This document shows, piece by piece, positions 3,179 through 25,434 of a stretch of 25,667 nt of DNA. The stretch spans positions 152,894 to 178,560 of the forward strand of contig NW_003158729.1 in the NCBI RefSeq assembly GCF_000003605.2. Direction: 5' to 3'. The notes beneath the pieces were generated by a model, which saw only the letters and a program-made list of their open reading frames with translations, ran no database searches and was not told the origin of the DNA. The stretch's first letter is position 1. Each line of letters starts with the position of its first letter. This DNA comes from Saccoglossus kowalevskii (lineage: Eukaryota; Hemichordata; Enteropneusta; Harrimaniidae). The position numbers were made by a program, and so were the translations under genes.

Positions 3179-3311
3179 ATAAAGGGCGGTGTTCGTCGCG
3201 CAACGCGTGTTCCAATTTCATGTAAACAAACAATGTACTTTACACACGTTGTATACGTCGCTAGGAGTCTCATATCAAACACGACGCGGTGCGTCGACCA
3301 CTGCCTTTAAA
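3179..3311 (-). mobile_element. MITE family 1, copy 1 (TAAAG termini)
   Basis: A non-coding element about 130 bp long, bounded by TAAAGGGCGG at the left and CTGCCTTTA at the right. Its core (TTCATGTAAACA, then ACGTTGTATACGTCGC, then a GAGTCTCATAT block) is the inverse of the copies at 8786-8924 and 17468-17582. Short open frames through it are accidental. Termini and multiple copies support a DNA-transposon derivative without its own transposase. Confidence 0.65.
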
Positions 3312-3439
3312 CATTGTAAAGATGGACGGCACTATACATGGTTGTACGTTTACCCTGCTTTCCTGGAGAACATGCATCTTTGCTAACCAATGCACGTTTG
3401 TCTGGCCATCACCTCACCGCCGTACTTTGGCAGATTCTG

Positions 3440-3865: not shown

Positions 3866-4267
3866 TTAAACATATAAATACCTTATTTTGTTAAACACTT
3901 TATTAATAAATTTCGCCGTCTGGACGACGCTGTTGGTCATAGTTACATAGTGTGTTCCATTAACAACCACGTGATCTACCAAATTAGATCTAGATTCATC
4001 ATGAAATGTGCAGTTTAACAGAAAACGAGTTTCGTCTTCATTTTTACCCGTGTTACAAAGACAAAATAATATATTTTCAATTATTTCGTTCCTGAATCGA
4101 TCCGCCTCTATTAGTAGAAGCAAAATGCCACAACGCAACTGTGACAAATATGAGCGTTGAGGGCGTGACAAAAAGTTGCGAGCAAATTCTACACTCATTG
4201 CGAACAATAATAATAATACATGATACTCTAAACAGGAAAAAAAATCAAGAGGTTGGTCAAGTTGCAA
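3866..4267 (-). pseudogene. LINE reverse-transcriptase C-terminal remnant
   Basis: The 133-residue open frame resembles the tail of the ORF2 product of invertebrate LINEs (CR1/L2/Jockey-like), downstream of the reverse transcriptase domain. Visible signs are an SQLRCGILLLLIEADRF-type segment at about residues 40-58, a zinc-knuckle-like CLCNTGKNEDETRFLLNC at about 88-105, and a final AKFINKVFNKIR-type helix before the stop. In the known family these parts read as an RCGILPL-type block, then a C-x-x-C followed by an EDExHFLL-C motif. There is no polymerase core, so this is a 5'-truncated copy, typical of LINE insertion. Upstream sequence on the same strand shows no continuation in frame. The family is recognised from memory of its motif. 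Confidence 0.6.
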
Positions 4268-4726
4268 ACGTTTTATTTTGTAATAATATTACAGGATTAT
4301 GAATTAGATACATAACGGAGACGTTGTGTGGTTTCCCTTATTCGCATGGCTTGCTACTAGTCTGTTGTATGACACCGTGACCTTCCAAACAGTCAAGACA
4401 TTTCCAGGTGAAATCGATTAAGACATAGGCTTTCTTCGTACTCAGTTTTGAATTCCATTATTGTTTCCGTGTTTACTTCTATCAGGATCACACCTGAAAA
4501 ATATTTTAACACGAAATGCTACATCTGTTACGTATTTAGTTAGCTAATGCAACACTGCCCTCAGTCGGTTAAATGTTCGTCAATCCACCACCCCCATCAA
4601 TAATCGATTAAGTTAAGATTTATTTAAATATGAAACAGATTTTGCACCTGTGAATAGATAATCTTGAAAACATATTGTGACGAACGCGACGAGAAAAGAA
4701 AACTATTATTAATTCATGACAATACT

Positions 4727-6660: not shown

Positions 6661-6816
6661 TTAAAACTCGGTTTTGATTTCATCGAAGTAGTACTTGATG
6701 TTTATCGCGTACGACAGCAACCAATCAAGCACGTCCATGAGTGATGTCACGGTCAAATCGACATTTTTATCATTCTTGTTACCATTCTCCGAAACCATGT
6801 GACCATTCTCGTAAAG
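6661..6816 (-). CDS. Gene B last exon (C-terminal helix)
   Basis: This exon has 156 nt including the TAA stop at 6663-6661. It follows a strong pyrimidine tract and CAG acceptor at 6819-6817. It codes 51 residues: a polar N/K/D-rich lead, then an amphipathic segment with SLMDVLDWLLSYA and IKYYFDEIK, the expected place of helix D. The corresponding exon of gene A has the same order of polar lead then helix. Confidence 0.8.
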   Translation of the reverse strand, partial: LYENGHMVSENGNKNDKNVDLTVTSLMDVLDWLLSYAINIKYYFDEIKTEF

Positions 6817-8681
6817 CTGAAGAAAAAGAATATCAAAACAGTGTCATAAATGTGTGTTGATGATACCAGCCCGAGAATCTGTGTTTATGTAATTCTAACC
6901 AGTGTCCTTGCCCGGACCAGTGCATTACTCTGTGGCACACCGCAACACAACTTTCTCAATTACACACGGGTACAGATTACAGTAAAATCTTTCTTTTGAA
7001 TTTTTGTACCATTTAAAAAAAAATTGTTAGGGTTAAGCGCAGAATTCGAATTACTAATAAGCATTATTATTTTGTTTTATTTAATACAGTATTTAAAAAA
7101 CACCAACGTCGTTTTTATATTGTTGGACTATTAAAAGTAAAACATACTCACCAAGTTACTTATTTCGGTATTTAATTGTTTCAATTTCTTAATCGTACCA
7201 CGCAATTTTATTTTCTTAGCAATAATTTTATGTTCATTATAATATGGTTTCAAAGCCGATAAAAAGCACGAAAGGTCATCGTTTGCTCTATGTAGTGTTT
7301 CTTTAAAATGGTCAACCTATATAAAAAAATAAAATATTTAATTAGTCATTATATGGTGTCGTTAATGTTAGATACCCCCCTCCAGCAAATATAACAACGA
7401 ACGAACCAACAGACTAAAACACAAGAGTATTTGAATAGCTGATCAGTGCATCGGAGAGGTTTAAGTATGGATTTTTGCTTACTCAGCAGAATAAATTAGA
7501 ATACAAATGTGGTTTCGTTTTGAGCAAAATACAAATATCCAAATAGTGCGTTCCGTCCTGAGGAATCGCCGAAAAGGTTTTGTCCAAGCCCAAAACTCGT
7601 TATTGAATGTGGCGAAAAATATGGTTTATAGCTGATGTAAAAAAAAAGAACCATCGTCTATGATGAGGTAAATTTTGTGGCGCCCTCTGACATCCACGTA
7701 CACCGCCCAGGGCCTGAAAATTTCGTAGTTTGAAGTCTATTGTGAAATGACGACACTTTATTTTATATTCTCGTCGTTATAAATGTAGTCGTGTACCACG
7801 TGACTTACCTTAGTTTGCTTAAGATCCGAACTGTCTTGTAGCATGAGTATATTTTCACAGAATACTTCAAGTTGTATTTCTTCGTCGTCTTTTGAGATCT
7901 GTAACGCAATGAAACACTATTTATCTGTCTGATTATATACGTGGCAACAGACAATTATACGCTAGAGTGTATACCATGACTTTAACATGATAAACAGGTA
8001 CCCTGCCCTGACGTGAATCCTGGACCTCAGAGAAGGTACCCTGCCCTGGCATGAACCTTGGACCTCAGAGGAGATTACAAATTATACTCATGGACAAGAA
8101 CTACATAGTAACCAGTAGATAAAGTCATAATGTGGGCATCGAAACCCTGTTTGGCGTTTAACATGCAATGAACCCGACTCCTGTATGGACATTATGTGCT
8201 CAATAAAGAGAAGAGAAGTGCGCCCTCACATCAAAGGAATAATTTCCCGTATCACGCCCGATCCAGCGTGCCCGGCTTTCATCGTTCAAAACAAAACGCG
8301 GCATTCTAAATTACGTCGTGTGTTTGAGGTCACGCTGTGGTAAAATTGTTATTACACCAATAAGGTATATGATTGCAAGCCCGGGCGCTTCTGCCGAACG
8401 ACCCCGGGCCGCAAAAGCCGTATCTAGTTCATAAAGAATATTTGTGCTAGAGTATAAAATGCGCGTGGCAATTTTCAGTGCGTACCCCATCAAAATCACG
8501 TTACCCACAATTATACGCACCTTCATATCACTTGTCAATTTCCTAATGCTTTTTTTCGTGGCACTGTAAAGCTGGCGTGCCTTCTTGGCCGAAATATGAA
8601 TCCCGGCTGTCGGTTTTGATTGGCTTGATACAAATAAGGAGACAAAGACTAAAATAACTACCAATGACAGCAACGCAGTAC
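6661..8681 (-). CDS. Gene B: candidate secreted four-helix cytokine-like protein (5' exon unresolved)
   Basis: Four coding exons join cleanly on the minus strand: 8681-8521, 7898-7809, 7316-7152 and 6816-6661. All introns between them are phase 0 with GT/AG ends; the acceptor before 8681 is phase 1. They give 189 residues plus a missing short first exon, about 197 in all. The first visible exon begins with a strong hydrophobic run (signal peptide core) followed by a polar, helix-forming segment. The later exons are rich in K, E, L and I with amphipathic spacing. Exon sizes and phases match gene A about 7 kb upstream in the same orientation. The two share a readable pattern in the third visible exon (HR-N, S-F, A-K, then E--I-K-I). 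Two mature cysteines lie in the middle exons, at different places from gene A's single one. A helical cytokine role is inferred from architecture; another small secreted helical protein is possible. Confidence 0.7.
7152..7316 (-). CDS. Gene B long helical exon (helix B/C region)
   Basis: This exon has 165 nt, phase 0 at both ends. The acceptor TATAG precedes 7316 and the donor GTGAGT follows 7152. It codes 55 residues without a stop. It shares with gene A exon 4 the spaced pattern H-R-x-N, S-x-F, A-x-K, then E--I-x-K-I. The N-terminal part is one amphipathic helix; after a short break a basic, leucine/isoleucine-spaced second helix follows. It contains one cysteine. Confidence 0.8.
7809..7898 (-). 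CDS. Gene B short linker exon
   Basis: This exon has 90 nt, phase 0 at both ends, with acceptor TTACAG and donor GTAAGT. It codes 30 residues: an acidic start, a hydrophobic-spaced middle with one cysteine, and a polar end. It corresponds by order and size to the 96-nt exon 3 of gene A. Residue similarity between the two is slight. Confidence 0.75.
7997..8072. repeat. Two-copy 38-bp tandem repeat in gene B intron
   Basis: Copies at 7997-8034 and 8035-8072 both begin GGTACCCTGCCCTG and end with GGACCTCAGAG. They differ at a few positions and lie within the intron between the first two visible gene B exons. Confidence 0.85.
8130..8220 (+). mobile_element. Possible LINE/SINE 3' tail in gene B intron
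   Basis: The stretch CTCCTGTATGGACATTATGT, followed by GCTCAATAAAGAGAAGAG, resembles the 3' ends of invertebrate LINEs and their SINE partners, which often end in a short-unit AATAAAG tail. It is in the opposite sense to gene B. This is recognised from style only. Confidence 0.3.
8521..8681 (-). CDS. Gene B signal-peptide / helix A exon
   Basis: This exon has 161 nt. It starts after a long pyrimidine tract and TTTCAG (phase 1: GT completes a split codon) and ends before GTGCGT in phase 0. Its first 20 or so codons are almost all hydrophobic (LLSLVVILVFVSLFV), a signal peptide core. After QSKPTAG comes a basic amphipathic helix (about the last 24 residues). Gene A exon 2 has the same order. 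The reading frame also stays open upstream to ATGs at 8727 and 8715, so an unspliced start is possible. The strong acceptor and the shared phase with gene A favour a separate first exon. Confidence 0.7.
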
Positions 8682-8785
8682 CTGAAATGTAGTGAAAGAA
8701 AAAGAATATTGACATTACGATTCGCATATTTACAATAATAGTGTAATGTAAATATTGTTACCACCAACCACCAACAATTGTAGAT

Positions 8786-8924
8786 TTAAAGGGCGGCAGT
8801 CACGATCGTCGTGCCACGTCCTGTTCGATATGGGACTCATAGTGACGTATACAACGCGTGTAAAATACATTGTTTATTAACATGAAATTCGAACACTCGC
8901 TGCGCGACGACCACCGCGCTTTAA
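8786..8924 (+). mobile_element. MITE family 1, copy 2
   Basis: This copy begins TTAAAGGGCGGCAGTC and ends CGACCACCGCGCTTTAA, whose reverse complement matches the beginning imperfectly. It lies directly upstream of gene B exon 2, so it could be in the gene's promoter or first intron. The core GTATACAACGCGTG, then ATTGTTTATT and CATGAAAT, is shared with copy 3. Confidence 0.75.
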
Positions 8925-9493
8925 GTGGGTCGGCACACGGTGAATAACGTTACGTGTACACTTAGTTGTTGGCGGCATATTGACTTTGTGTTGAAATGCA
9001 TAGGCGCCTTAGTCAGGGGGATCAACTTGAAATATATTTCTGGATTTTCTGAGCGTGAAATCGAAATATTATGATTATCCAATTTGGTTCATTGGTCCAA
9101 AGCGACACATAATAAATGCCTTCTAAAGCTACTCAGTGCATAAAAAGAACAGGTTAGATACCAGGAAATGGTACGTGTATCTAAGATGTGATGACTAATC
9201 TTAAATAAAAGAGAGCAAAAAGCAATTTAAAAGTCGTCATACAAAAGTTTTATTTCACCGTGTTTTATTACATCATCAAGGTACGAATATTCTTGACAGA
9301 TTTACATAAGTAGATATACAAAAAAAAAACGCTAAATATCATCGAACGTTTTCTCCGTTAGTTTGTTAATACCAGATTTACGCGTCGCAATACACACTGT
9401 AGATTGCTGGGTTCGCACGGTAAAAATAGTAGTCATTCAATAAACCTTGATATGTTAGAATTTTAATCGTATTCCCCTAAAACGCGAGCAAAA

Positions 9494-9660
9494 TCATTGA
9501 ATATTTTTCTTTAAAATGGAATGAAGTAAACGAATTTTAAAGCACGAAATTGAGACAAAACGCAAAGCATTTATGGCAAAGTCTAACATGCATACTCGAA
9601 ATAGTAAAACGAGTATCCGGTCCACGTAAAAATTATACAATTTTCAACGGATTTACATTT
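9494..9660. repeat. Diverged duplicated segment, copy 1
   Basis: It aligns in the same orientation with 10520-10712. Shared blocks include TGAATATT-TTCT-TAAA-TGGA-TGAAGT, a GACAAAA-GCA block, ACATACTC-AAATA, a GGTCCA-G block and GGATTT-AC near the end. Similarity by eye is about 60-65%. Confidence 0.55.
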
Positions 9661-10519
9661 GTATAAGCATATAACCAGAATGTTAACGTTAAGTTTAACT
9701 CCAAATCCAAATGTCATCGAACGTATTAATTTGTCAATGTTGGGTTTACATATTCTTTCTGTCGCAAAAGGGATTGAAATTAAGATTACTTACAAGAAGC
9801 CATATGTGGACGCGTTGATAAATTGTGCTGTATATACTTAACTTCAACCCTACAGTTCGGCTATGCACAGGTAAATAAAGTTTGATTGAACATTCTTACT
9901 TTTAATGATATAACATTAGGAATATCCATGGTACAACAAATTAAATTTAGCACAAAGTTAAATTCCGTATATGTTTTTTTCAATGGGCATTCGAATTGTA
10001 GGTTGTTGGGTCAGCAGGGTAAAAATATTAGTCATTCGGTAACCCCGTGTCACGTGACGTACTTTTACCTGGCGAGAGTCCAAAGTGTCAGCGTTAATCA
10101 ACGTTCCTTCGATGCACGGCAGTAACGTTTGAAGATTCATAAAAACATAAATCAGATTAAATTGGATTCGCACCAATTAGAGAATTAGTTGAATCTGGGG
10201 AAGCGAGTCTCCCATACGTGCGGTATTGAACATTTCTATAGATCACCTCATGGTGGCGTTGACGGACCACACCTGTAAATATTTACGTCATGTGTCTGTT
10301 TGTCGTCTGTCTCTATGAATGTCATCTCAGGACATATCAGGTCACCAGAATAATTCATTTTTGTTTTAGCAGTTTGTCCAACAAATAAGAGTATTTACAC
10401 AATCGGCGAAGGATTCCGACAACAATGTAACTGTCAAGTTTATTTTCTAGTTGTGTAATCCTACTTTTGGGAAAAAGCCGCAGATTTTAAATTACATTTT
10501 TTCCTTCAAATAATTACAA

Positions 10520-10712
10520 AGTCAATGAATATTCTTCTCTAAAGTGGAGTGAAGTCGACGAATCTCAACCCATAGAAATGGGACAAAATGCACGACATTG
10601 TTTCATAGAACGTGGCCGACAAACATACTCCAAATACGGAAGAGCAATTATGGTTGAATAGTGAGTACCTGGTCCAAGCGAAAATACAATTACAAGTGGA
10701 TTTCACGGTGAC
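10520..10712. repeat. Diverged duplicated segment, copy 2
   Basis: This is the partner of 9494-9660, same orientation, with several small insertions. No reading frame is conserved between the two copies, so the shared sequence is more likely an old repeat or regulatory DNA than an exon. Confidence 0.55.
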
Positions 10713-13700
10713 TATCATATTTAATTCTCTCATCTTAGTTTTATGACTCACGTTATTTGGGTCAAAGGTCACCCTGTACGATAACTGACAGGTTCAGGTC
10801 TTCACAACTCAGGTATGTAGTTCCTGGCCGGAACAGCATGGAAACCAATAAATACAATCAATTATAGTTTTTAGGGCCAAAGTTCAACATTTATGTACTG
10901 CTGGTATCTGTGCTATGAGATCCCTTAATCTAGGACGTCACATTGACGGACCTCAAGGTCAAGGTAAACTGTCGGTTTATTTATTTAGTGGCTCGTCGCA
11001 TTTTGTAATTTTTTGTTACCTGAGTACTTATCCAACTTGTTTAGATTGTGAATGCGTCCACTCATGCTTTACATATACAACTGTTCAACCCAGTGCACAC
11101 CTGTCGATTTTGATGCGATTGTTCTACGACTCGATGTTTCAGACGGAACGCATACACACGCGCACGCCACGATTGCAAACGACGCGTTCGCCACTGACGC
11201 ATGCGTGCTGTCCGTCTTTTTTGCGTTCTATCTCGAGATAAAATACAGGTTACACATTTTTTCCAAGCTATTGGTTTATTGCACATTAATTATTATACAA
11301 AACCTTTTCAAATATTTCAAGTAGTTTTCCAAATGACCAGAATTTGACCTGGTACAGTAATGGTATCAGAAAAGTATTTCCAAAGTATTCCTACATTAGT
11401 ATATAATCTTTCATCTTTCTCCGACAACGTCATGTTTTATAGTAAACAAATTGCATATCACATAATAACAAATACAATAGGCTCGTCTACGAGTGGGCAC
11501 CATATACAACACGATCTCAGTCAGCGACCGGTCGACGATTAGTCGTAATGGCTCAAGATGGTGAATCTTTATGACTCAGTCGCCAACTAGAAATTCTCTG
11601 CCAGGAACACTCGCACACTTTACCATACGCTTACCAACCGGCATTACATGTCAAAAATAAAAGGCGAATAAACTGTTGGCGAATTTCAGTGTCACGCGGT
11701 GTATTTGTCTGAGTATGTCATGAATTCCGTCATTTTCCTAAATTATTTTCTAACCAATGACAGGCAACCTTGCGATGACGTAATAGATCAGAACATCATG
11801 TGCTCAATTGTCTATTACCACGGTAACTTAAGTAGGTCGGTATATTCCGGGGCTCTCATGGAATGATTTACTTTCTCTAACAAAAAATATGTGATGGTAT
11901 TTATTCAGCCTTTACAGGATTTATTAATTTGAATACATTTTCTCACAATGAAATATTTGACCCACCCGTTTCGTACTTTACTTCGACGACTTTATTTCGC
12001 GTTATTACATTAATTATTATGAATTTATTGTTACAACTATCCACTGGCCACAATTAAAAAAATTGTCAAGCCGGACTTATTTACACATAGAACCAATTAT
12101 TTAAACAAAAATAAAATAGTATCATTACATGATTCGAAAGTCACAGAAATGAAGCCTATTCAATCACAGTGGTAACTAAAATATTGCAAAAGTTGACCAA
12201 GCCATTTCAAACCTGGTTTGTTTTCACTAACATTCCATTCGCAAATCTGGACATTCAGGTATCATATTAAAATAATGTTTGAAATCTCTTGATAAACGCG
12301 GTTTGTATTTGCACTGGTACGCATTTTAGGTAAGGTGTAGAACGCATATGAGTAACATACACTAAATCCCCAAGATGTATGCTGAGTTTTATTATCATCA
12401 TTATATCCGGTTCTTAGTTTATACTCGAGGCCCCTCGAGAAATGTTAAGATAAATACATTCTGGCACAATGCCAATGATGTACCCGTCACGTAAAAATGT
12501 ATAATCCCAATTATGAGGGTGATTCGCTCTAATAACTATTCACAGATGTTCGGTAATGTATGTGGGGGCAAAAACGTGATTCACCCACTAAAACAGAAAT
12601 GAATATGAAAGTTGATTGAACAGTTTTATTGCACATAGTTTTCAATTTTATACAAAAATAACCATTAAAAATTCTTTATCAAACATTCAAAAAGTGACAC
12701 CTGTAAGTTTATTATGACGTGGGCGTATAAGCTCACACATGGCTTCGAATTAAAATATCCTACGAAAGTTTGCACATATATTTAATTCTTGTATTTTTCG
12801 AATATTTCACCAAGAACGCCTTTCCTGGAAAATTAATATTTACTAACTTCAAACTGACGGCAAAATTGTCTGCATAGCATGTGAAAATGGTAATTCCCCC
12901 CCAACGAATGAGAATTTCAAATACATGTTAAATTTAAAATTGGAATATATAAAAAGATTAAATACAATAAATAGATAAATAAAAATTAATAACTTATAAA
13001 TATCATGAAACTAATAATAAATATCAAAACAACAATTAAAATATAGTAATTAAGTTTTTAAAGTTTTTGAAACCAAAATAATATAAATGAAAAAAGCTAT
13101 TAAAATTCAAATATTTTATATTTGTTTCTATGTTTTAACACCTGCTTCGGTCAACGAAAAAAAAAACACACCCCACACATCCTAAAAATTGATAAATATT
13201 AATATCATTAGCGATATAATCCTACAAATAAATACAAAACAATTTAGAAAATATATATTGCAAACCGTACTCTTCGAAACTTTTATATGTCAGACTTCGT
13301 TCAAGTAAGTGAATCATATATATATATATATATATTAATAAAATACAAAAATTAGGTATAATAATTCTACGTGACCTAGTAAACCGTTGAAATATATAAG
13401 ATACTGTATATAATACACCTTTTACTCTAAAAAAAAATAACATTATAAAATTCAAATATATGAATATTGTACATAATACAGTTTTTATGCTGAATCCGAA
13501 ATCCGAAAATACTTTAAACTAAGAACCCAATGGTGTTAGTTCCATTGGGTGCTATCATTACACTTAATTATGCTTAACTCACAAGTGAGAAACAAAAAAC
13601 AAACAAAAAAACAACAACAGAAAATAGCACCATACGGCAACGCAGAATGAAAGACAGAGAGTGTTTCTAGTACTCTGTAGCCATTCCACTGTATTAATAT

Positions 13701-13918
13701 TATTGCAGATTTTTGGTCATTTGTGTCAGTCAAGAAACTGACAGTACAAAAAAAAAAAATTCAAAAAAGTTTTTAAAAAGTATAAGTATTTGTATAACAA
13801 ATAAACTGAAATGAGTGCTTAGCACTCGTACTTTGGAGATTACAAACGTCTACCATAGGAGAGTCGTAATCCGGGTATGTAAATCACGTGATACCACTGC
13901 GCACGCGCAATGGGACTA

Positions 13919-14110
13919 TCAGTCCATCTCGTGTTTCGTGCTGAGCGATTCCACGCCTTGCTTAGCACGTCCAATGTACATGAATAATTCATACACCACT
14001 TTAACCCCTCGGTATTCTGATGGCTGGAATTTGCTAATGGACCTCGCCTTTTTCTTCTCTTCCTTGGAAAGGTTTTCTCTGACTTCGTCTGTGCATCCCA
14101 ACAAAGACAA
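13919..14110 (-). CDS. Gene A exon 5 (C-terminal helix)
   Basis: This exon has 192 nt including the TGA stop, after acceptor TTGTTCAG. It codes 63 residues. The first 30 are polar and basic, with the only mature cysteine and the NLS sequon. Residues 31-58 of the exon form an amphipathic stretch (YRGVKVVYELFMYIGRAK) that would be helix D. Confidence 0.85.
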   Translation of the reverse strand: MSLLGCTDEVRENLSKEEKKKARSISKFQPSEYRGVKVVYELFMYIGRAKQGVESLSTKHEMD

Positions 14111-15902
14111 CTGAACAAAAAGAAATTTAGGAAAAAAAAGGATTATTATAAGTTAGTGGCGAAGAGGTTTACACAAGGAACAAACAATCTGTAATTTTAA
14201 TGTATCCGTGAATGGTGTATTCTGGGTAACAAGGACACATTTTATACTTACTATGTCAGCTATTTTGTTTTTTGTATTTCCAACAAAACGATATATGTTC
14301 TTGAAAATACGTTTCTCTTTCTTGTCAAGTGATTTCATTGCTTTCTTCATAAATAGTGAATACATCTCCAGATTTCGTCGATGTGCCATCAGCAGCTCTT
14401 GTTCCTAAATATAAAAAAAATCAGAAAAACAAAAATCAGCACTGTCTTTAATCGATGTTGGCATTACAAGAAGTCGAAACATGTAGGCTTTAATGTTATT
14501 TAAAACGAATAAAAAGTTACTGACTGATATATTTAAATGCATTTTTTTTCCTATTTCAAATAAATCGATATGACTTCAAACACATACGAATGCGAGGGTG
14601 GAAGTGTTCAACTCATGCAATTTATATATATCCCATAACTACTCTCGAGTAACACTTACTTCAAATTTTTTTTCACTTTGTCTGTCAATAGCGTTCGGCA
14701 GGCCATTCACATGATGAGTCGATAGTTCATTCATTAGTTTCGGGTTGCTATCCTCCTATAAACAGATAAAGAACAGCACACCATTATGTTTTTGTGCGAT
14801 GAGTTAATGGCCAGTACAATCACAGTCCCTCTATCATAGAGTGGTACAAGCATAGACGTTTCCGGCAGCCGTACCAAAGACGACGTAAAGACACGTAAAG
14901 ACCCGGAGACTAAGTCATGTGGGAGTTTCTATATGTATACTAGTATATACTTTGTTTGTTGTCACCTACGCATGCCGACCTATTTTGGTCATGGGGTTTC
15001 CTACTAAACTTCAATACAACTCCTTCTGGAATTTGCATAATAATGCAGGGCCGTCCTTGTCTTGGTGACGTACATGTTATGCTGCTGCTTTACGTCTCCA
15101 ATGTAAAGACTTGTTGGGAGTTTGCTACCCGGATGTGGTTATGAGGTTGAAATAGTAGGGGTGACCGGAAAAGTGTGTCCGGTGCAATTTTTGTTTTCTC
15201 GTTCTTATCTGTGCAACTTTGGCCTGTAACACTTTGCATGCAAATTCTATTCTCTGTGTCCAGATTTCAATTTTTTCTAAACAAAAATGACAGCCACCCC
15301 CATGATTTAAAATGGTTGATTCCTTAAAGATTACATCAGATTGAATGTACAAATTAACAGAACCAGTCATCAAATTTTATATACAGAACGAAACAAAATT
15401 ACGTGATGGTCATTACCGCCTTCGAGTAAAGAAATCTTTAGTTAATGAATGACAATTTATTTTCGTTGAGTTTCTACAAACAAATACCAACTCATGACTA
15501 TTATACAATTAATTTTATCAGGATCCCTCTATTGAATAAAAACAGCTTTATATACTTACATATTTTGTATACATTTCTTTAGTCTTTTTTTGTAAAATTT
15601 TGACAAGTAACACCAATCGGCTATATTCGTCGTTTATATCCGTTGATCCCCTTGTGCTGCGTCCTCCGTTCTCGTCTTTGCCGTGTTTCCCCTTTTTCCC
15701 ATCTTTGACCGGCTTTCCAATACAACCATGCATTATAACTACTAAGAGTAGTGTCAGGATACCTGTGAAATGGACAATATGCCGTGAGAGGAGAACGCGA
15801 TTCACAATAAATACTGAGGAACGACGGAGATAGGAACGAGAAAACCGACATGTTCGATGACTCAAAGGTAAGATACCAACCTATTTTGAAAAGTGTAGCC
15901 AT
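13919..15902 (-). CDS. Gene A: candidate secreted four-helix cytokine-like protein, five exons
   Basis: Exons are 15902-15881, 15762-15560, 14755-14660, 14404-14252 and 14110-13919 (22, 203, 96, 153 and 192 nt). Intron phases are 1, 0, 0, 0 and every junction is GT/AG. They encode 221 residues. Residues 1-23 form a signal peptide (MATLFKIG, then a leucine/valine core to HGCIG). Residues 24-48 are a basic, glycine-rich linker. Residues 49-75 form a first amphipathic helix. The exon 3 segment is 76-107, a long helical exon 108-158, and a last helix about 189-216. One cysteine (164) and one N-glycosylation sequon (Asn171) lie in the mature part. The size, the signal peptide and the 1-0-0-0 five-exon plan are those of vertebrate IL-6/G-CSF-type cytokines, which act outside the cell on gp130-class receptors. 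Gene B is a tandem relative. Family assignment rests on architecture; the gene itself is strongly supported. Confidence 0.8.
14252..14404 (-). CDS. Gene A exon 4 (long helical exon)
   Basis: This exon has 153 nt, phase 0 at both ends, with acceptor ATTTAG and donor GTAAGT. Its 51 residues are almost all helix-formers (K, E, L, M, R) with hydrophobic residues spaced three or four apart. It aligns with gene B 7316-7152 through HRRN, S-F, A-K and E--I-K-I positions. It is the best conserved exon of the pair. Confidence 0.85.
14660..14755 (-). CDS. Gene A exon 3 (short linker exon)
   Basis: This exon has 96 nt, phase 0 at both ends, with acceptor TATAG and donor GTAAGTG. Its 32 residues are polar with scattered leucines (KLMNELSTHHVNGL). 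This place corresponds to the A-B connection in five-exon cytokine genes. Confidence 0.8.
14821..14850. repeat. Sequence shared with the 3448-3460 inverted repeat
   Basis: CACAGTCCCTCTAT here repeats the left arm of the small inverted repeat at 3449-3475. It is followed by CATAGAG, giving a short CTCTATcATAGAG fold-back. It lies in gene A intron 2. Confidence 0.4.
15560..15762 (-). CDS. Gene A exon 2 (signal peptide core and helix A)
   Basis: This exon has 203 nt. It starts in phase 1 after ATTTCACAG and ends in phase 0 before GTAAGTA. It codes the hydrophobic signal core (ILTLLLVVIM), a lysine/glycine-rich linker (KPVKDGKKGKHGKDENGG) and a helix ending KKTKEMYTKY. The linker could be unstructured or bind acidic glycans. 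Confidence 0.85.
15881..15902 (-). CDS. Gene A exon 1 (start of signal peptide)
   Basis: This exon has 22 coding nt: ATG at 15902-15900 then six more codons and one base, followed by donor GTTGGT. Joined to exon 2 it completes a standard signal peptide. An alternative unspliced start (ATG at 15863) would give a long basic leader with no signal-like start, so the spliced form is preferred. Confidence 0.75.
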
Positions 15903-16017
15903 TATCGTGGTATACAATAATATATGTATATATACAGACGATATTTGTAGGGGTCCGTCTGTGTTCAGTGCTGACCAGAACGAATGAAGTTGCATGTGGG
16001 CAGTCATGGTTTAGCTG

Positions 16018-16025
16018 TATATATA
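16018..16025 (-). promoter_or_regulatory. TATA element of gene A
   Basis: TATATATA on the minus strand, about 115 nt upstream of the gene A start codon, would place transcription start near 15987-15994 with a 5' UTR of about 85-90 nt. A second TATATATAC-like stretch at about 15915-15937 is closer to the ATG and is an alternative. Confidence 0.45.
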
Positions 16026-16046: not shown

Positions 16047-16056
16047 GGGAACTCCC
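16047..16056. promoter_or_regulatory. NF-kappaB-like site upstream of gene A
   Basis: GGGAACTCCC is a perfect-arm match to the loose kappaB consensus GGGRNNYYCC, on either strand. It sits 21 bp upstream of the TATA element. Binding is not shown. Confidence 0.45.
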
Positions 16057-16081: not shown

Positions 16082-16090
16082 TTCCGAGAA
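16082..16090. promoter_or_regulatory. STAT-like (GAS) site upstream of gene A
   Basis: TTCCGAGAA matches the STAT dimer consensus TTCNNNGAA. It lies 25 bp beyond the kappaB-like site. A match alone is weak evidence; the clustering is what makes it worth noting. Confidence 0.35.
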
Positions 16091-17467: not shown

Positions 17468-17582
17468 TTAAAGGGCGGCAGTCGTCGTGCCGCGTTCTGT
17501 TCGATATGGGACTCATAGCGACGTATACAACGCGTGTAAAATTGATTGTTTATTTTCATGAAATACGACCACCGCGCTTTAA
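17468..17582 (+). mobile_element. MITE family 1, copy 3
   Basis: The termini are TTAAAGGGCGGCAGTCGTCG and its imperfect inverse ending ACCACCGCGCTTTAA. The flank AGTTTATAT occurs on both sides, like a 9-bp (or 8-bp) target duplication. The core matches copy 2 closely but is about 25 bp shorter. Confidence 0.75.
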
Positions 17583-18508: not shown

Positions 18509-20580
18509 TCATTTCCATACATCCTCAAGGTATATTTTAACTATGGTTTAAAACTTGTATACAGTGTTTGTCGTTGATAAAATAACATGATTAGGGTCTA
18601 TGTATGACCTATGGGTATAGCTTCAACCAAATACAGTGGGAAGGCGTGCAGCAACCATGACAACCATATACTATACATCAACCTATTAAGCAAACCGGAA
18701 ATAGTTTGCAAATATAATATGCCCAAGTGGCAGGTGATTTCCTTTGCACAATTCTGAGCGAGAACTCCCCCTTCTTGAAAAAAATAACTACTGGAAGATT
18801 CGAAATGAATGTGTAATACTAATTAATGTATTGATCGATTCAACAATTGGTAAAATTACACAGACAACATGACCCCCACCACCTTAAACAAACCGTCTCT
18901 CCGACACTGGCAACATTTCAAAAGCTATATGAGTTTACCAAATAAACATTTACATGTTTCAACAATAAATTATCTTTATTACTTTAATACAAATTGTATT
19001 CATTATTCAACACAATTGCGAGGCAATTGTGATCTATGACCCAGCTCTGCGACATTACCCAGTGACACTGGAATGTTGCTGCTCGTGTAAGCACGTAAAA
19101 GCGAGTTCAATGACCTGACTTTAAATGTAAGTTTCCCTTGATGTCAGCAAAATGTACCCCGTTTTGCGTAAAGGGGAATGTCACTGAACGTAGACTCGAT
19201 TTGAAACACAGTCAACATTTTGTGGTTGAAAGCAAAACATTAGACGCACAGGGCGATCGAGTTTCATGTAAACATGCAACGTATATTACTCGCGTTGTAT
19301 GCGTCGCATGGGACTCACATGAAGCATCTGTGACGCTTTAACAATAATTTACGCAGACGAGGGAAATAAAAAAATAAATAAACGCTATTTCCGATCCACA
19401 CAGAACAATAAGCAATTGCAAATTTTCAGATTAGAACTGCGCACTGACGAAATTGAATCTATCTCGGAGGAAATTTATGTTGAAACCTTGCATGCGACCA
19501 TCTAATAATCGCAACACAATCGCAATGCATCGCCAAGTTTCTCTCGTTGCTAGACAGATATACAAACATATGTCAATAAGTTAATGTTTCTCTAATCACT
19601 TTGAATCACGTGCAGTAAAAACATTTCTTTGATTTGGTCAGTAAACTATTACTGCATGTACCATACAGAGCATTCAGTATTCAATAACAAGTTTTAAAAA
19701 AGTTGATATTTTAGAGAAAGTGGGGAACCATGCCAAATAGCTTTAACTGTTCAACAAACATTGTATTATTGTTGTATGACCATCTGATGTAACGAATGAA
19801 ACGACCAAAACAGGTTTCACCATAGGTGGCGCACTTTGCCGAACTCTTGTCACTGGTCTATCGTCTAATATGCATTTCCTCATTTTTTTCATTTGCGGGA
19901 TGAGTAGAAATACGTTTAAATATTTCCAATGAGTTAATTATGAAAACGAGGCATTTACCTTAAAATCTGCATTCATACTTGTACATGTGAATGTTATGAG
20001 CACGTTGACTTGAGTAGTAAATGTCAAAATTGTCTAGATTTGCCACATGGGGGCGCTCTCAGTATGGCGTTCAACCAAGATTAGAAAATGTATGACATAA
20101 TTTCACATTCTTACTATGGATTTCACCTCAAGTTTTTTTTCTAAAATACAATAAAATGCGATATACATATATGGTTAAAAAATGAAACAGTGTAAGTTTG
20201 TGCGATATTAAGTTGTGATTTATTTTTTTCACTTTTCGCCTTTAGTGAGTATAGTAACCAAACAATTCCATTTGCCATTTTTTTCACAAAAATGGAATTC
20301 TGATGGAGATAAGCACTTGGAGATACTTTGACAAAATATTATTTGGATGCCATGACAACAGTGCTACAATGTTATTTAAACGTTGTAGTTCTAGCCATAA
20401 TAGAACTGCCAGTGCGTGCTGGAGATAAAAATAAGTGGTACAATGACAAGAGTATGGAAAAGGTGGAAAATTTATTTTTTTGATTTCAACTCAACTACTC
20501 GTAAAACAACTCGAGGAGCATGTTTAAAATTCTGATGGATTAAGACTCGTGATCAACACCAGACCACCCAACAACCGCAA
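18509..20580. other. AT-rich intergenic DNA, no gene recognised
   Basis: No gene is supported. A degenerate inverse copy of MITE family 1 is visible at about 19222-19340 (TTTCATGTAAACATGCAACG then CGCGTTGTATGCGTCGCATG). The open frame over it (19138-19341) is a by-product. Confidence 0.5.
19222..19340 (-). mobile_element. MITE family 1, degenerate copy 5
   Basis: It matches the inverse orientation of copies 2 and 3 (GTTTCATGTAAACA, CGCGTTGTATGCGTCGCATG, GGACTCACATG), with a decayed left end and a CTTTA terminus on the right. Confidence 0.5.
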
Positions 20581-20697
20581 TCATCACCAGGGCACCCGCC
20601 ATCACCGCCATTACACCGTCATCACCACCAGTGCACCCGTCATCACCATCAGTGCACCCGTCATCCCCACCAGTGCACCCGTCATCACCATCAGTAC
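20581..20697. repeat. 21-bp minisatellite, array 1
   Basis: Degenerate copies of a unit like GTGCACCCGTCATCACCATCA. It is separated by about 200 bp from a more regular array of the same unit. Confidence 0.8.
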
Positions 20698-20893
20698 ATT
20701 ATATCACATGAGAGGTGCCGCCAAAACATTACATTGCGCTGACCAGGTGTCAGGGATTAATTAAATCAATTAATATAATTACAATAATTAAGATCAAACA
20801 TAAATAGAGTATAAAGTAAGTATGAACGTAAACATAAACATACAGAGTGACGCTGTCCGCCCGACGGGAAAAATAAACAAAAACAGTTTCCCA

Positions 20894-21058
20894 CATCATC
20901 ACCATCAGCCTGAGTGCACCCGCCATCACCATCAGTGCACCCGTCATCACCATCAGTGCACCCGTCATCACCATCAGTGCACCCGTCATCACCATCAGTG
21001 CACCCGTCATCACCGTCAGTGCACCCGTCATCACCATCAGTGCACCCGTCATCACCAC
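20894..21058. repeat. 21-bp minisatellite, array 2
   Basis: About seven near-identical copies of the 21-bp unit GTGCACCCGTCATCACCATCA. Because 21 is a multiple of three, several frames stay open and give repetitive peptides such as HHHQCTR or GCTDGDD. These are not taken as proteins. Confidence 0.9.
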
Positions 21059-21279: not shown

Positions 21280-21826
21280 AACTGTTTCTAATGGGGGTGA
21301 GAATACCGCCAAAATTAGCTTGGTGTCATTATTTGAACATTGTTTAGTTGTTTGGTCATTATTTGGAAACTTGTTTGGTTATCATTTGGTCATTATTTTG
21401 CGCTTATTCCATTATTGTGTTATTGCTACAATATTATTTTGTCATTGTTTCATTGTGTTACAATTGTGTCGTTATTTAGAAATTATCTTGACATTCAATT
21501 GTCATAAGATTCGGTTATTTTCACGTCTAAATGTCTCGACATTCGGTTCACTTGACTTGCGATTACCTCAACATTCGGTTCGCTTGACTTGCGATTACCT
21601 CAACATTCGATTACCTGACCTACATTAGCTGACCCCGCTATACATGTAGTATTCGATCCATAGTCCCGGGCCGCCTCCAATAAAGCATTGCTCAAGATGG
21701 CAATGCGGCCTTTGTAAAAGTTAGCGGGAATTTCTAAATAATGGTCGTTTCACCAACATCCAGGGAATGACTGAGGTCGTCAGAGCCTGTCGTGACATAA
21801 TATCAAATGCCGCAAACTTGGTTAGA
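21280..21826. repeat. Long inverted repeat, left arm
   Basis: It is the reverse complement of 24948-25434 with indels. Shared blocks are GGGGTGAGAATACCGC, AAAATTAGCTTGGTGTCATT, the CATTATTTGG-rich stretch, GATTACCTGACCTACATTAG, ACATGTATAGCGGGGTC (inverse), and the GACGACCTCAGTCA block near the inner end. The left arm has an extra ~150-bp piece with two copies of TTCGGTTCRCTTGACTTGCG. Its version of the internal open frame is frameshifted. Confidence 0.85.
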
Positions 21827-24943: not shown

Positions 24944-25168
24944 GTGTCAAGTTTTGCGGCTTCTGATATTGTGTCACGACAGGCTCTGACGACCTCAGTC
25001 AGTTCCCCGGATGTTGATGGAAACGGCCATCATTTAAAAATTCTCGCTAACTTTTACAAAGGCTACATCGCTATCATGAGCAATGCTTTATCGGAGGCGG
25101 CCCGGAAATATGGATTGAATACTACATGTATAGCGGGGTCAGCTAATGTAGGTCAGGTAATCGAATGA
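24944..25168 (+). pseudogene. Coding-like fragment inside the repeat, family not recognised
   Basis: The 74-codon frame has a balanced amino-acid make-up, unlike the low-complexity frames around it. It shows a hydrophobic-spaced helix (LKILANFYKGYIAIMSNALSEAARKYG) followed by a CIAGSAN segment. The same residues are partly readable in the left arm. It probably derives from the mobile element's protein; no domain is recognised and no start context is seen. Confidence 0.35.
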
Positions 25169-25434
25169 AACAATGACAAAATAAATATTGTAGCAATTAC
25201 ACAATAATAAAATTTTTAAGAAATAAAGTTGAAATAATGAAACAATAACAATACGATGCTGCAGTAATAACACAATAATGGAATAAGCGCAAAATAATGT
25301 TTAAATAAAGAACAAATAACTGAATAATGACCAAATAATAACCAAACAAGTTTCCAAATAAAGACCAAACAACTAAACAATGTTCAAATAATGACACCAA
25401 GCTAATTTTAGCGGTATTCTCACCCCATAGTTTC
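24948..25434. repeat. Long inverted repeat, right arm
   Basis: This is the partner of 21280-21826. It contains an open frame on the plus strand (24944-25168) that reads like real protein in the part about 24990-25150 (ANFYKGYIAIMSNALSEAAR, then KYGLNTTCIAGSANVG). The left arm preserves the same residues only with frameshifts. The right arm has an extra ~80-bp AT-rich piece. Confidence 0.85.

What the first reader, a model, noticed from the sequence alone, without database searches (positions are those of the whole stretch)
6661..15902. Tandem pair of candidate invertebrate four-helix cytokine genes
Two minus-strand genes (A, 15902-13919; B, from about 8.7 kb to 6661) share exon order, sizes, phases and a signal peptide followed by amphipathic helices. 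Seen directly: every splice site, the phases, the 221-residue gene A product, and weak residue similarity strongest in the 51/55-residue helical exon. Known: class I helical cytokines diverge so fast that gene structure and fold outlast sequence. Inferred: these are secreted cytokines, possibly ligands for gp130/Domeless-like receptors, for which clear ligands in non-vertebrate deuterostomes are poorly known to me.
Basis: partly seen in the sequence, partly recalled or inferred. Interest (0 to 1): 0.95.

Follow-up and report, generated by a model that had tools for sequence, protein, structure and literature searches.

The report
Candidate acorn-worm cytokine gene pair
Two neighbouring genes in what looks like an acorn-worm genome encode small secreted helix-rich proteins built like the genes of vertebrate IL-6-type immune messengers, and the same genome carries a gp130-type receptor; if they are its ligands, this signalling pair is older than the vertebrates, but the protein fold could not be tested here.

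Summary
Gene A (five exons, 221 aa) and gene B (four firm exons; exon 1 uncertain) are real gene models. A scan of both strands under all 81 intron-phase strings finds only 1-0-0-0 models, at exactly these two places, and none in 400 shuffled windows (limits were set after seeing the genes). Both start with a signal-peptide-like stretch, then helix-rich exons. A and B resemble each other weakly (exon-anchored p = 0.010). The mitochondrial contig has Saccoglossus-type gene order and code, so the host is most likely an acorn worm. The strongest new context is a gp130-type receptor gene in the same genome (the 14 best solved relatives are all gp130, best E = 7e-16). Against: no Pfam or PDB sequence match, similarity to vertebrate cytokines no better than in helical controls, and no fold test, because the structure tool takes no spliced protein. 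Verdict: secreted helical proteins with class I cytokine gene architecture, probably ligands of the gp130-like receptor (about 0.6). Papers seen report no such cytokine in acorn worms.

The parts
15881..15902 (-). gene A exon 1 (22 nt, MATLFKI + 1 base; intron phase 1); two in-frame ATGs lie upstream, at 15995 and 16007
   Evidence: weak donor
15560..15762 (-). gene A exon 2 (203 nt): rest of signal peptide, basic linker, predicted helix A
14660..14755 (-). gene A exon 3 (96 nt): predicted A-B loop
14252..14404 (-). gene A exon 4 (153 nt): predicted helix B, turn, start of helix C
13919..14110 (-). gene A exon 5 (192 nt with stop): end of helix C, C-D loop, predicted helix D
9794..9803 (-). 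gene B possible exon 1 (10 nt, ATGGCTTCTT|gtaagt, phase 1); unproven
   Evidence: one of six candidates; donor 2.30 bits, another candidate (11065-11020) 2.91; preferred because it gives a signal-peptide start MASC-TALLSLVVIL and because TATATACAGC lies upstream
8521..8681 (-). gene B exon 2 (161 nt): signal peptide, predicted helix A
7809..7898 (-). gene B exon 3 (90 nt)
7152..7316 (-). gene B exon 4 (165 nt): predicted helices B and C (moment of C not significant)
6661..6816 (-). gene B exon 5 (156 nt with stop): predicted helix D at the end
16014..16023 (-). TATA-like motif TATATACAGC upstream of gene A (one of four TATA-like matches on the sense strand of the 1 kb upstream)
16047..16056 (-). 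palindromic NF-kappaB-type site GGGAGTTCCC, the only GGGRNNYYCC in the window
   Evidence: consensus recalled; such a site is expected about once per window, only its place is notable
16082..16090 (-). STAT-type site TTCTCGGAA (TTCNNNGAA; one of 8 in the window, 9.2 expected)
9827..9836 (-). second of two exact copies of TATATACAGC, upstream of the possible exon 1 of gene B
   Evidence: the wider stretch shows no special similarity to gene A's promoter

Best explanation
Genes A and B are a diverged tandem pair encoding secreted, mostly helical messenger proteins of class I helical-cytokine type. Each is made as a preprotein, the signal peptide (split over exons 1 and 2) is removed, and the mature protein of about 165-200 residues folds as a four-helix bundle: helix A in exon 2, the A-B loop in exon 3, helices B and C in exon 4 and across the exon 4/5 border, helix D at the C-terminus. 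One or both bind and bring together the gp130-like receptor encoded elsewhere in this genome, which signals through JAK and STAT. Gene A may be inducible through a kappaB site beside its TATA box. Shown: gene models, phases, no second copy by sequence search, receptor gene. Supported but weak: helices, A-B homology, promoter logic. Inferred: fold, secretion, receptor binding, JAK-STAT output.
For: Models with phase string 1-0-0-0, at A and B, are the only ones found among 81 strings on both strands of the window; 0 of 400 shuffles give any. Coding-exon sizes A 22/203/96/153/192 and B 10(?)/161/90/165/156 parallel IL6 19/191/114/147/168 and CSF3 40/155/108/147/165 (the two human rows are recalled; their phases work out as 1-0-0-0); a carp G-CSF paper states that five exons and four introns are kept from human and mouse to fish (PMC6389648, passages). 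Hydrophobic moments at 100 degrees in hand-placed helices: A p = 0.07, 0.04, 0.0025, 0.06; B p = 0.016, 0.02, 0.03 in three of five. A-B exon-anchored p = 0.010. Receptor: an Ig domain and two cytokine-receptor domains with WSNWS, fibronectin-like exons by eye; Pfam EpoR_lig-bind 8.9e-10; of 60 PDB rows shown the 14 best are all gp130, best E 6.9e-16. The single kappaB-type site of the window lies 145-154 bases upstream of gene A's ATG. A and B match only their own exons in 572 Mb at E <= 10, so they are not repeats.
Against: No cytokine family among the 5 weak Pfam rows for A and B and no credible PDB relative for A, B or their joint profile (one row each, E 0.87-1.2). Alignment z-scores against ten vertebrate cytokines average 0.76 (A) and 0.37 (B); reversed A and B average 0.26 and 0.20, reversed known cytokines 0.46; the two z > 3 for A are IL-11 (in register) and CNTF (out of register). 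hhalign probabilities are all under 1%. HMM p-values of 0.001-0.003 are matched by 3 of 41 negative controls for the CNTF group and 7 of 41 for the joint set (p <= 0.005). Exon-anchored comparison with IL-6 and G-CSF shows nothing (p 0.29-0.56) while IL-6 with G-CSF gives z = 6. Automatically chosen helix stretches (three per protein) give no moment p below 0.05, and two of five hand-placed stretches in B give 0.54 and 0.75. AU-rich elements are not enriched in the 3' regions. The fold was not tested. No STAT match was found, which the tool says does not show absence.
Confidence: 0.6

Rival explanations
1. A and B are secreted helical proteins of a lineage-specific family (hormone, mucus or immune effector) that is not a class I cytokine; the 1-0-0-0 pattern is coincidence, since a phase-1 intron after a signal peptide and phase-0 introns are both common.
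For: No sequence link to any cytokine; chance of the phase string alone about 3% with assumed phase frequencies; if A and B are duplicates, the pattern counts once.
Against: The same string and similar exon sizes in two very diverged neighbours, the size of the helix-B/C exon, and a gp130-type receptor in this genome for which the papers seen name no ligand in acorn worms.
Confidence: 0.25
2. They are helical cytokines of another branch (growth-hormone/prolactin-like, or class II such as IL-10/interferon-like) and use a receptor other than the gp130-like one.
For: Amphioxus has a described GH-like type-I helical cytokine of 208 residues (PMC9010856, passages); growth-hormone genes are recalled to share the 1-0-0-0 pattern.
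Against: No match to an EPO/GH profile, though that test has little power; IL-10-family genes share an intron pattern of their own (PMC2654155, passages; the phases are recalled). The two other places found with EpoR_lig-bind were below cut-off.
Confidence: 0.12
3. The gene models are artefacts or decayed genes without a protein product.
For: No transcript evidence; gene B exon 1 is uncertain and gene A's first donor is weak.
Against: Open frames across all exons, phase-compatible junctions, 0 of 400 shuffles with any such model, not repeats.
Confidence: 0.03

Closest known systems
IL-6 / G-CSF / IL-11 (five-exon gp130-type class I cytokines of vertebrates)
   Same: signal peptide, about 200 residues, five coding exons with phases 1-0-0-0, similar exon sizes, predicted helices in the same exons (human rows recalled)
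   Different: no significant sequence similarity; few cysteines: A has one after the signal peptide, B two
CNTF / CLCF1 / cardiotrophin-1
   Same: the hhalign match of A to this group is in register over 71 columns (loop 'LP' motif through helix C, 23% identity), reached by about 1 in 60 shuffles; helix D GVKVVYELFMYIGRAKQGVE resembles CNTF GLKVLQELSQWTVRSIHDLR, p = 0.035, one of two p < 0.05 among 16 such tests
   Different: probability 0.5%; controls reach similar scores; vertebrate genes of this group have fewer exons (recalled)
Amphioxus GH-like type-I helical cytokine (GHl)
   Same: invertebrate deuterostome helical cytokine of 208 residues with little sequence similarity to vertebrate relatives (PMC9010856, passages)
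   Different: grouped with growth hormone by its authors; not compared here by sequence
Drosophila Unpaired (Upd) ligands of Domeless
   Same: ligands of a gp130-like receptor outside vertebrates (PMC13203501, section 3 and passages)
   Different: not compared here by sequence or gene structure

Membership tests
class I helical cytokines | secreted: N-terminal signal peptide | tested here: met
   hydrophobic start required and found in both models; cleavage sites by eye only, no signal-peptide program; for gene B the very N-terminus depends on exon 1
class I helical cytokines | four long helices in up-up-down-down bundle | not testable with these tools
   spliced protein not accepted by the structure tool; amphipathic helices only suggestive
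class I helical cytokines | five coding exons, intron phases 1-0-0-0 (IL-6/G-CSF type) | tested here: met
   five exons of G-CSF from PMC6389648; human sizes and phases recalled. Met outright for gene A; for gene B exons 2-5 with entry phase 1, exon 1 uncertain
class I helical cytokines | binds a class I cytokine receptor | not testable with these tools
   a gp130-type receptor exists in the genome; binding unknown
named Pfam cytokine families (IL6, LIF_OSM, CNTF and others) | profile match | tested here: not met
   hmmscan of A and B at E up to 10: none of the 5 family rows is a cytokine
gp130 receptor family (gene on contig C3044) | N-terminal Ig, cytokine receptor domains with conserved cysteines and WSXWS | tested here: met
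   exons joined by eye
gp130 receptor family (gene on contig C3044) | transmembrane segment and Box 1 | not tested
   that part of the gene was not fetched

The most novel reading that the evidence does not exclude
A and B are the ligands of the gp130-type receptor of a hemichordate: a complete IL-6-type ligand-receptor module outside the chordates, found by gene architecture where sequence search fails. The ligand would then be at least as old as the deuterostome ancestor, against the published view that IL-6-family ligands began in vertebrates, and the phase-1-0-0-0 scan would be a general way to find the missing ligands in other invertebrates.
Probability: 0.5. Interest if true: 0.85.

Novelty: new member of a known kind. 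Interest (0 to 1): 0.72.

Why it matters
Many invertebrates have gp130/Domeless-like receptors, JAK and STAT, but IL-6-like ligands have not been found in most of them: a 2026 survey of 18 phyla or subphyla found IL-6-family cytokines only in vertebrates (PMC13203501; [quoted passage not shown] A named candidate pair with a named receptor in the same genome makes the question directly testable.

Tried and rejected
Direct homology: hmmscan, phmmer and profile search of PDB, pairwise alignments with ten recalled vertebrate cytokines, hhalign, HMM scores. Encouraging p-values were rejected as evidence after one search showed that reversed and unrelated helical proteins score alike. CNTF z = 3.2 rejected: the alignment is out of register. 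Further paralogues by sequence: none found in the genome. Promoter likeness of A and B as proof of gene B exon 1: only the 10-mer is shared; 7 more places in the window match it with one mismatch, and in a wider alignment scan 59 of 1022 windows score as high as the 9.9-kb stretch and one at 13.5 kb higher. AU-rich elements: not enriched. STAT_bind search found nothing, but the tool states that this does not show absence. IL6Ra-bind alone was below cut-off. Synteny: 120,979 of the 225,667 bases joined read N (withheld); only an nAChR-type channel exon was recognised, which tells nothing.

Full report
1. What is there. Gene A: 15902-15881, 15762-15560, 14755-14660, 14404-14252, 14110-13919, giving 221 residues; its first donor is weak (0.38 bits) and two in-frame ATGs lie upstream, at 15995 and 16007, so exon 1 may code for more. 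Gene B has 8681-8521, 7898-7809, 7316-7152, 6816-6661. Its exon 2 begins in phase 1, so a first exon is needed. Of six candidates I lean to ATGGCTTCTT|gtaagt at 9803-9794, which would give MASCTALLSLVVIL... (193 residues). For it: the 10-mer TATATACAGC occurs exactly twice in the window, both on the minus strand, 23 bases before this ATG and upstream of gene A. Against it: the candidate 11065-11020 has a slightly better donor (2.91 against 2.30 bits), seven near copies of the 10-mer exist, and beyond the 10-mer the two upstream stretches are no more alike than many others.

2. Chance. I wrote a small gene finder (donor and acceptor weight matrices from general animal consensus, recalled; exon 2 110-260 nt with a hydrophobic start, exon 3 60-135, exon 4 120-200, last exon 40-80 codons to a stop, introns 60-1300). 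On both strands of the window, over all 81 phase strings, only 1-0-0-0 gives models: three, at two places, which are A (score 23.6) and B (33.8). None of 400 dinucleotide-preserving shuffles gives any model (an earlier run with a stricter donor cut-off found B alone and nothing in 60 shuffles). Over 104,688 unmasked bases of the contig, window included, the scan adds one model with another phase string inside a tandem repeat; four other fetched stretches give none. Limits and cut-offs were set after seeing A and B, so this shows that the models are not chance, not that the phase string was predicted in advance.

3. Whose genome. The window lies in a 572-Mb assembly of 4830 contigs. Its mitochondrial contig (17,037 bases) reads cox2, atp8, atp6, cox3, nd3, nd4L, nd4, nd5, cob, -trnP, -nd6, trnF, (rRNA region, inferred), trnL, nd2, trnL, nd1, -cox1, trnQ, trnA (protein genes recognised by eye, cox1 also by Pfam). 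In COX1 TGA is Trp, and conserved positions fit ATA = Ile and AAA = Lys (read by eye). PMC2697986 (passages) says that nd5-cob adjacency is shared by the two hemichordates and Xenoturbella, that ATA = Ile is found in echinoderms and hemichordates, and AAA = Lys in Saccoglossus; PMC3121625 (passages) says that Saccoglossus differs from Balanoglossus by inversion of COX1 and transposition of ND1 or ND2. That is the order seen here. The host is thus most likely an acorn worm of the genus Saccoglossus or a near relative.

4. Are A and B related? Unconstrained alignment says no (z 1.2, p 0.12, reversed controls as high). If exons are aligned one by one, as a shared gene structure would demand, z is 2.5 and p 0.010, per-exon p 0.44, 0.17, 0.038, 0.072; reversed exons and wrong exon order give z -0.3 and 0.3. 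Neighbours on one strand with the same structure: a diverged tandem duplicate is the simplest reading. Neither shows another copy in the genome by sequence.

5. Are they class I cytokines? Gene architecture fits IL-6 and G-CSF closely (human sizes recalled; five exons of G-CSF in carp, human and mouse from PMC6389648, passages). Helical moments support four amphipathic helices in A (p 0.07, 0.04, 0.0025, 0.06) and three of five stretches in B, but these stretches were placed by hand; the three automatic stretches per protein give no p below 0.05, and the same simple rule recovers the helices of known cytokines only in part. Sequence does not decide: no Pfam cytokine, no credible PDB chain, pairwise z-scores near the level of reversed sequences except IL-11 for A, hhalign below 1%, although its best match for A, to the CNTF group, runs in register from the 'LP' of the A-B loop to the end of helix C. 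HMM scores looked good (A against the CNTF group p 0.0013, B against the joint gp130 set p 0.002), but of 41 negative controls 3 reach p <= 0.005 for the CNTF group, 7 for the joint set and 2 for the IL-6 group, so this only says 'amphipathic helices'. Known cytokines can themselves be invisible to each other in such tests: CNTF finds no other cytokine in PDB by phmmer at E <= 10. The fold test was not possible.

6. The receptor. Searching the genome with Pfam receptor families led to contig C3044 (EpoR_lig-bind over its cut-off, IL6Ra-bind not). On its minus strand lie an Ig exon, four exons of a cytokine receptor homology region ending in YWSNWS, and, by eye, further fibronectin-like exons. 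Joined by eye, the first five give Pfam Ig_3 6e-10, EpoR_lig-bind 8.9e-10, fn3 2.6e-6, IL6Ra-bind 6e-5 (just under its cut-off). Of 75 PDB sequences at E <= 0.01 (60 shown) the 14 best are all gp130, best 6.9e-16. A search of the genome with it gives 8 places: its own four exons, a 72%-identical stretch of the WSXWS exon on C3943 (E 2.8e-12, in withheld surroundings; perhaps a second related receptor) and three weak ones (E 1.4 or more). The transmembrane and Box 1 part was not fetched. A Saccoglossus 'IL6R' is already in print (PMC13203501, section 3); the parts I saw name no ligand for it.

7. Regulation. The only GGGRNNYYCC in the window is a palindrome, GGGAGTTCCC, at 16047-16056, 23 bases from gene A's TATA-like motif and 145 from the ATG. 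One such site per window is expected by chance (1.1 matches; 31 of 100 shuffles have two or more), so only its place is notable, about 1% for a given 200 bases, and it was noticed after the fact. A TTCNNNGAA lies beside it, but such sites are not rare (8 seen, 9.2 expected), and the 1 kb upstream holds four TATA-like matches on the sense strand.

8. Novelty. PMC13203501 (abstract, section 3 and passages) finds IL-6-family cytokines only in vertebrates, with a BLAST cut-off of 1e-5 and 30% identity, which genes like these would hardly pass. PMC9010856 (passages) reports a GH-like helical cytokine and further related genes in amphioxus and none in acorn worms and sea squirts. PMC1963337 (passages) describes a gp130-like receptor in Ciona. 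My ten literature searches, nine of them on cytokines or their receptors, listed no report of a hemichordate helical cytokine; most subscription papers and preprints are not held, and long result lists were seen only at their top.

9. Verdict. Real genes, secreted and helical as far as sequence can say, with the architecture of gp130-type cytokines and a gp130-type receptor in the same genome. I hold 'class I cytokine, probable ligand of that receptor' at about 0.6; the claim is one structure prediction and one binding assay away from a decision.

Noticed in passing
genome contig C3044:394024-399135 (-), L033, L036, L039: A gp130-type receptor gene (Ig, cytokine receptor homology region with WSNWS, fibronectin-like exons); a 72%-identical stretch of its WSXWS exon lies on C3943:39201-39353, perhaps a second receptor.
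   Followed up: partly
genome contig C4830 (L034, L035): Mitochondrial genome with Saccoglossus-type order (inverted cox1, nd2 before nd1) and a repeated segment between atp8 and atp6.
   Followed up: partly
window 21294-21816 and 24953-25426: A dispersed element in inverted copies (four arm pairs of 54-148 nt, 81-91% complementary), perhaps a fold-back or transposon remnant.
   Followed up: no
window 20580-21057: Two arrays of a 21-base tandem repeat (5.6 and 6.9 copies), related and about 220 bases apart.
   Followed up: no
window 8806-8896, 17482-17572 and 3207-3314: A 91-base direct repeat (90% identity) upstream of gene B exon 2 and at 17.5 kb, with a third inverted relative at 3.2 kb (79%).
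   Followed up: no
window 3866-4288 (-): A 140-residue open frame that by eye resembles the end of a retrotransposon reverse transcriptase; no Pfam family over its cut-off.
   Followed up: partly
contig C4776:269029-272018 (L030): Open frames of a nicotinic-type ligand-gated ion channel (Neur_chan_memb 6.7e-18 for the first), about 100 kb from gene A.
   Followed up: partly
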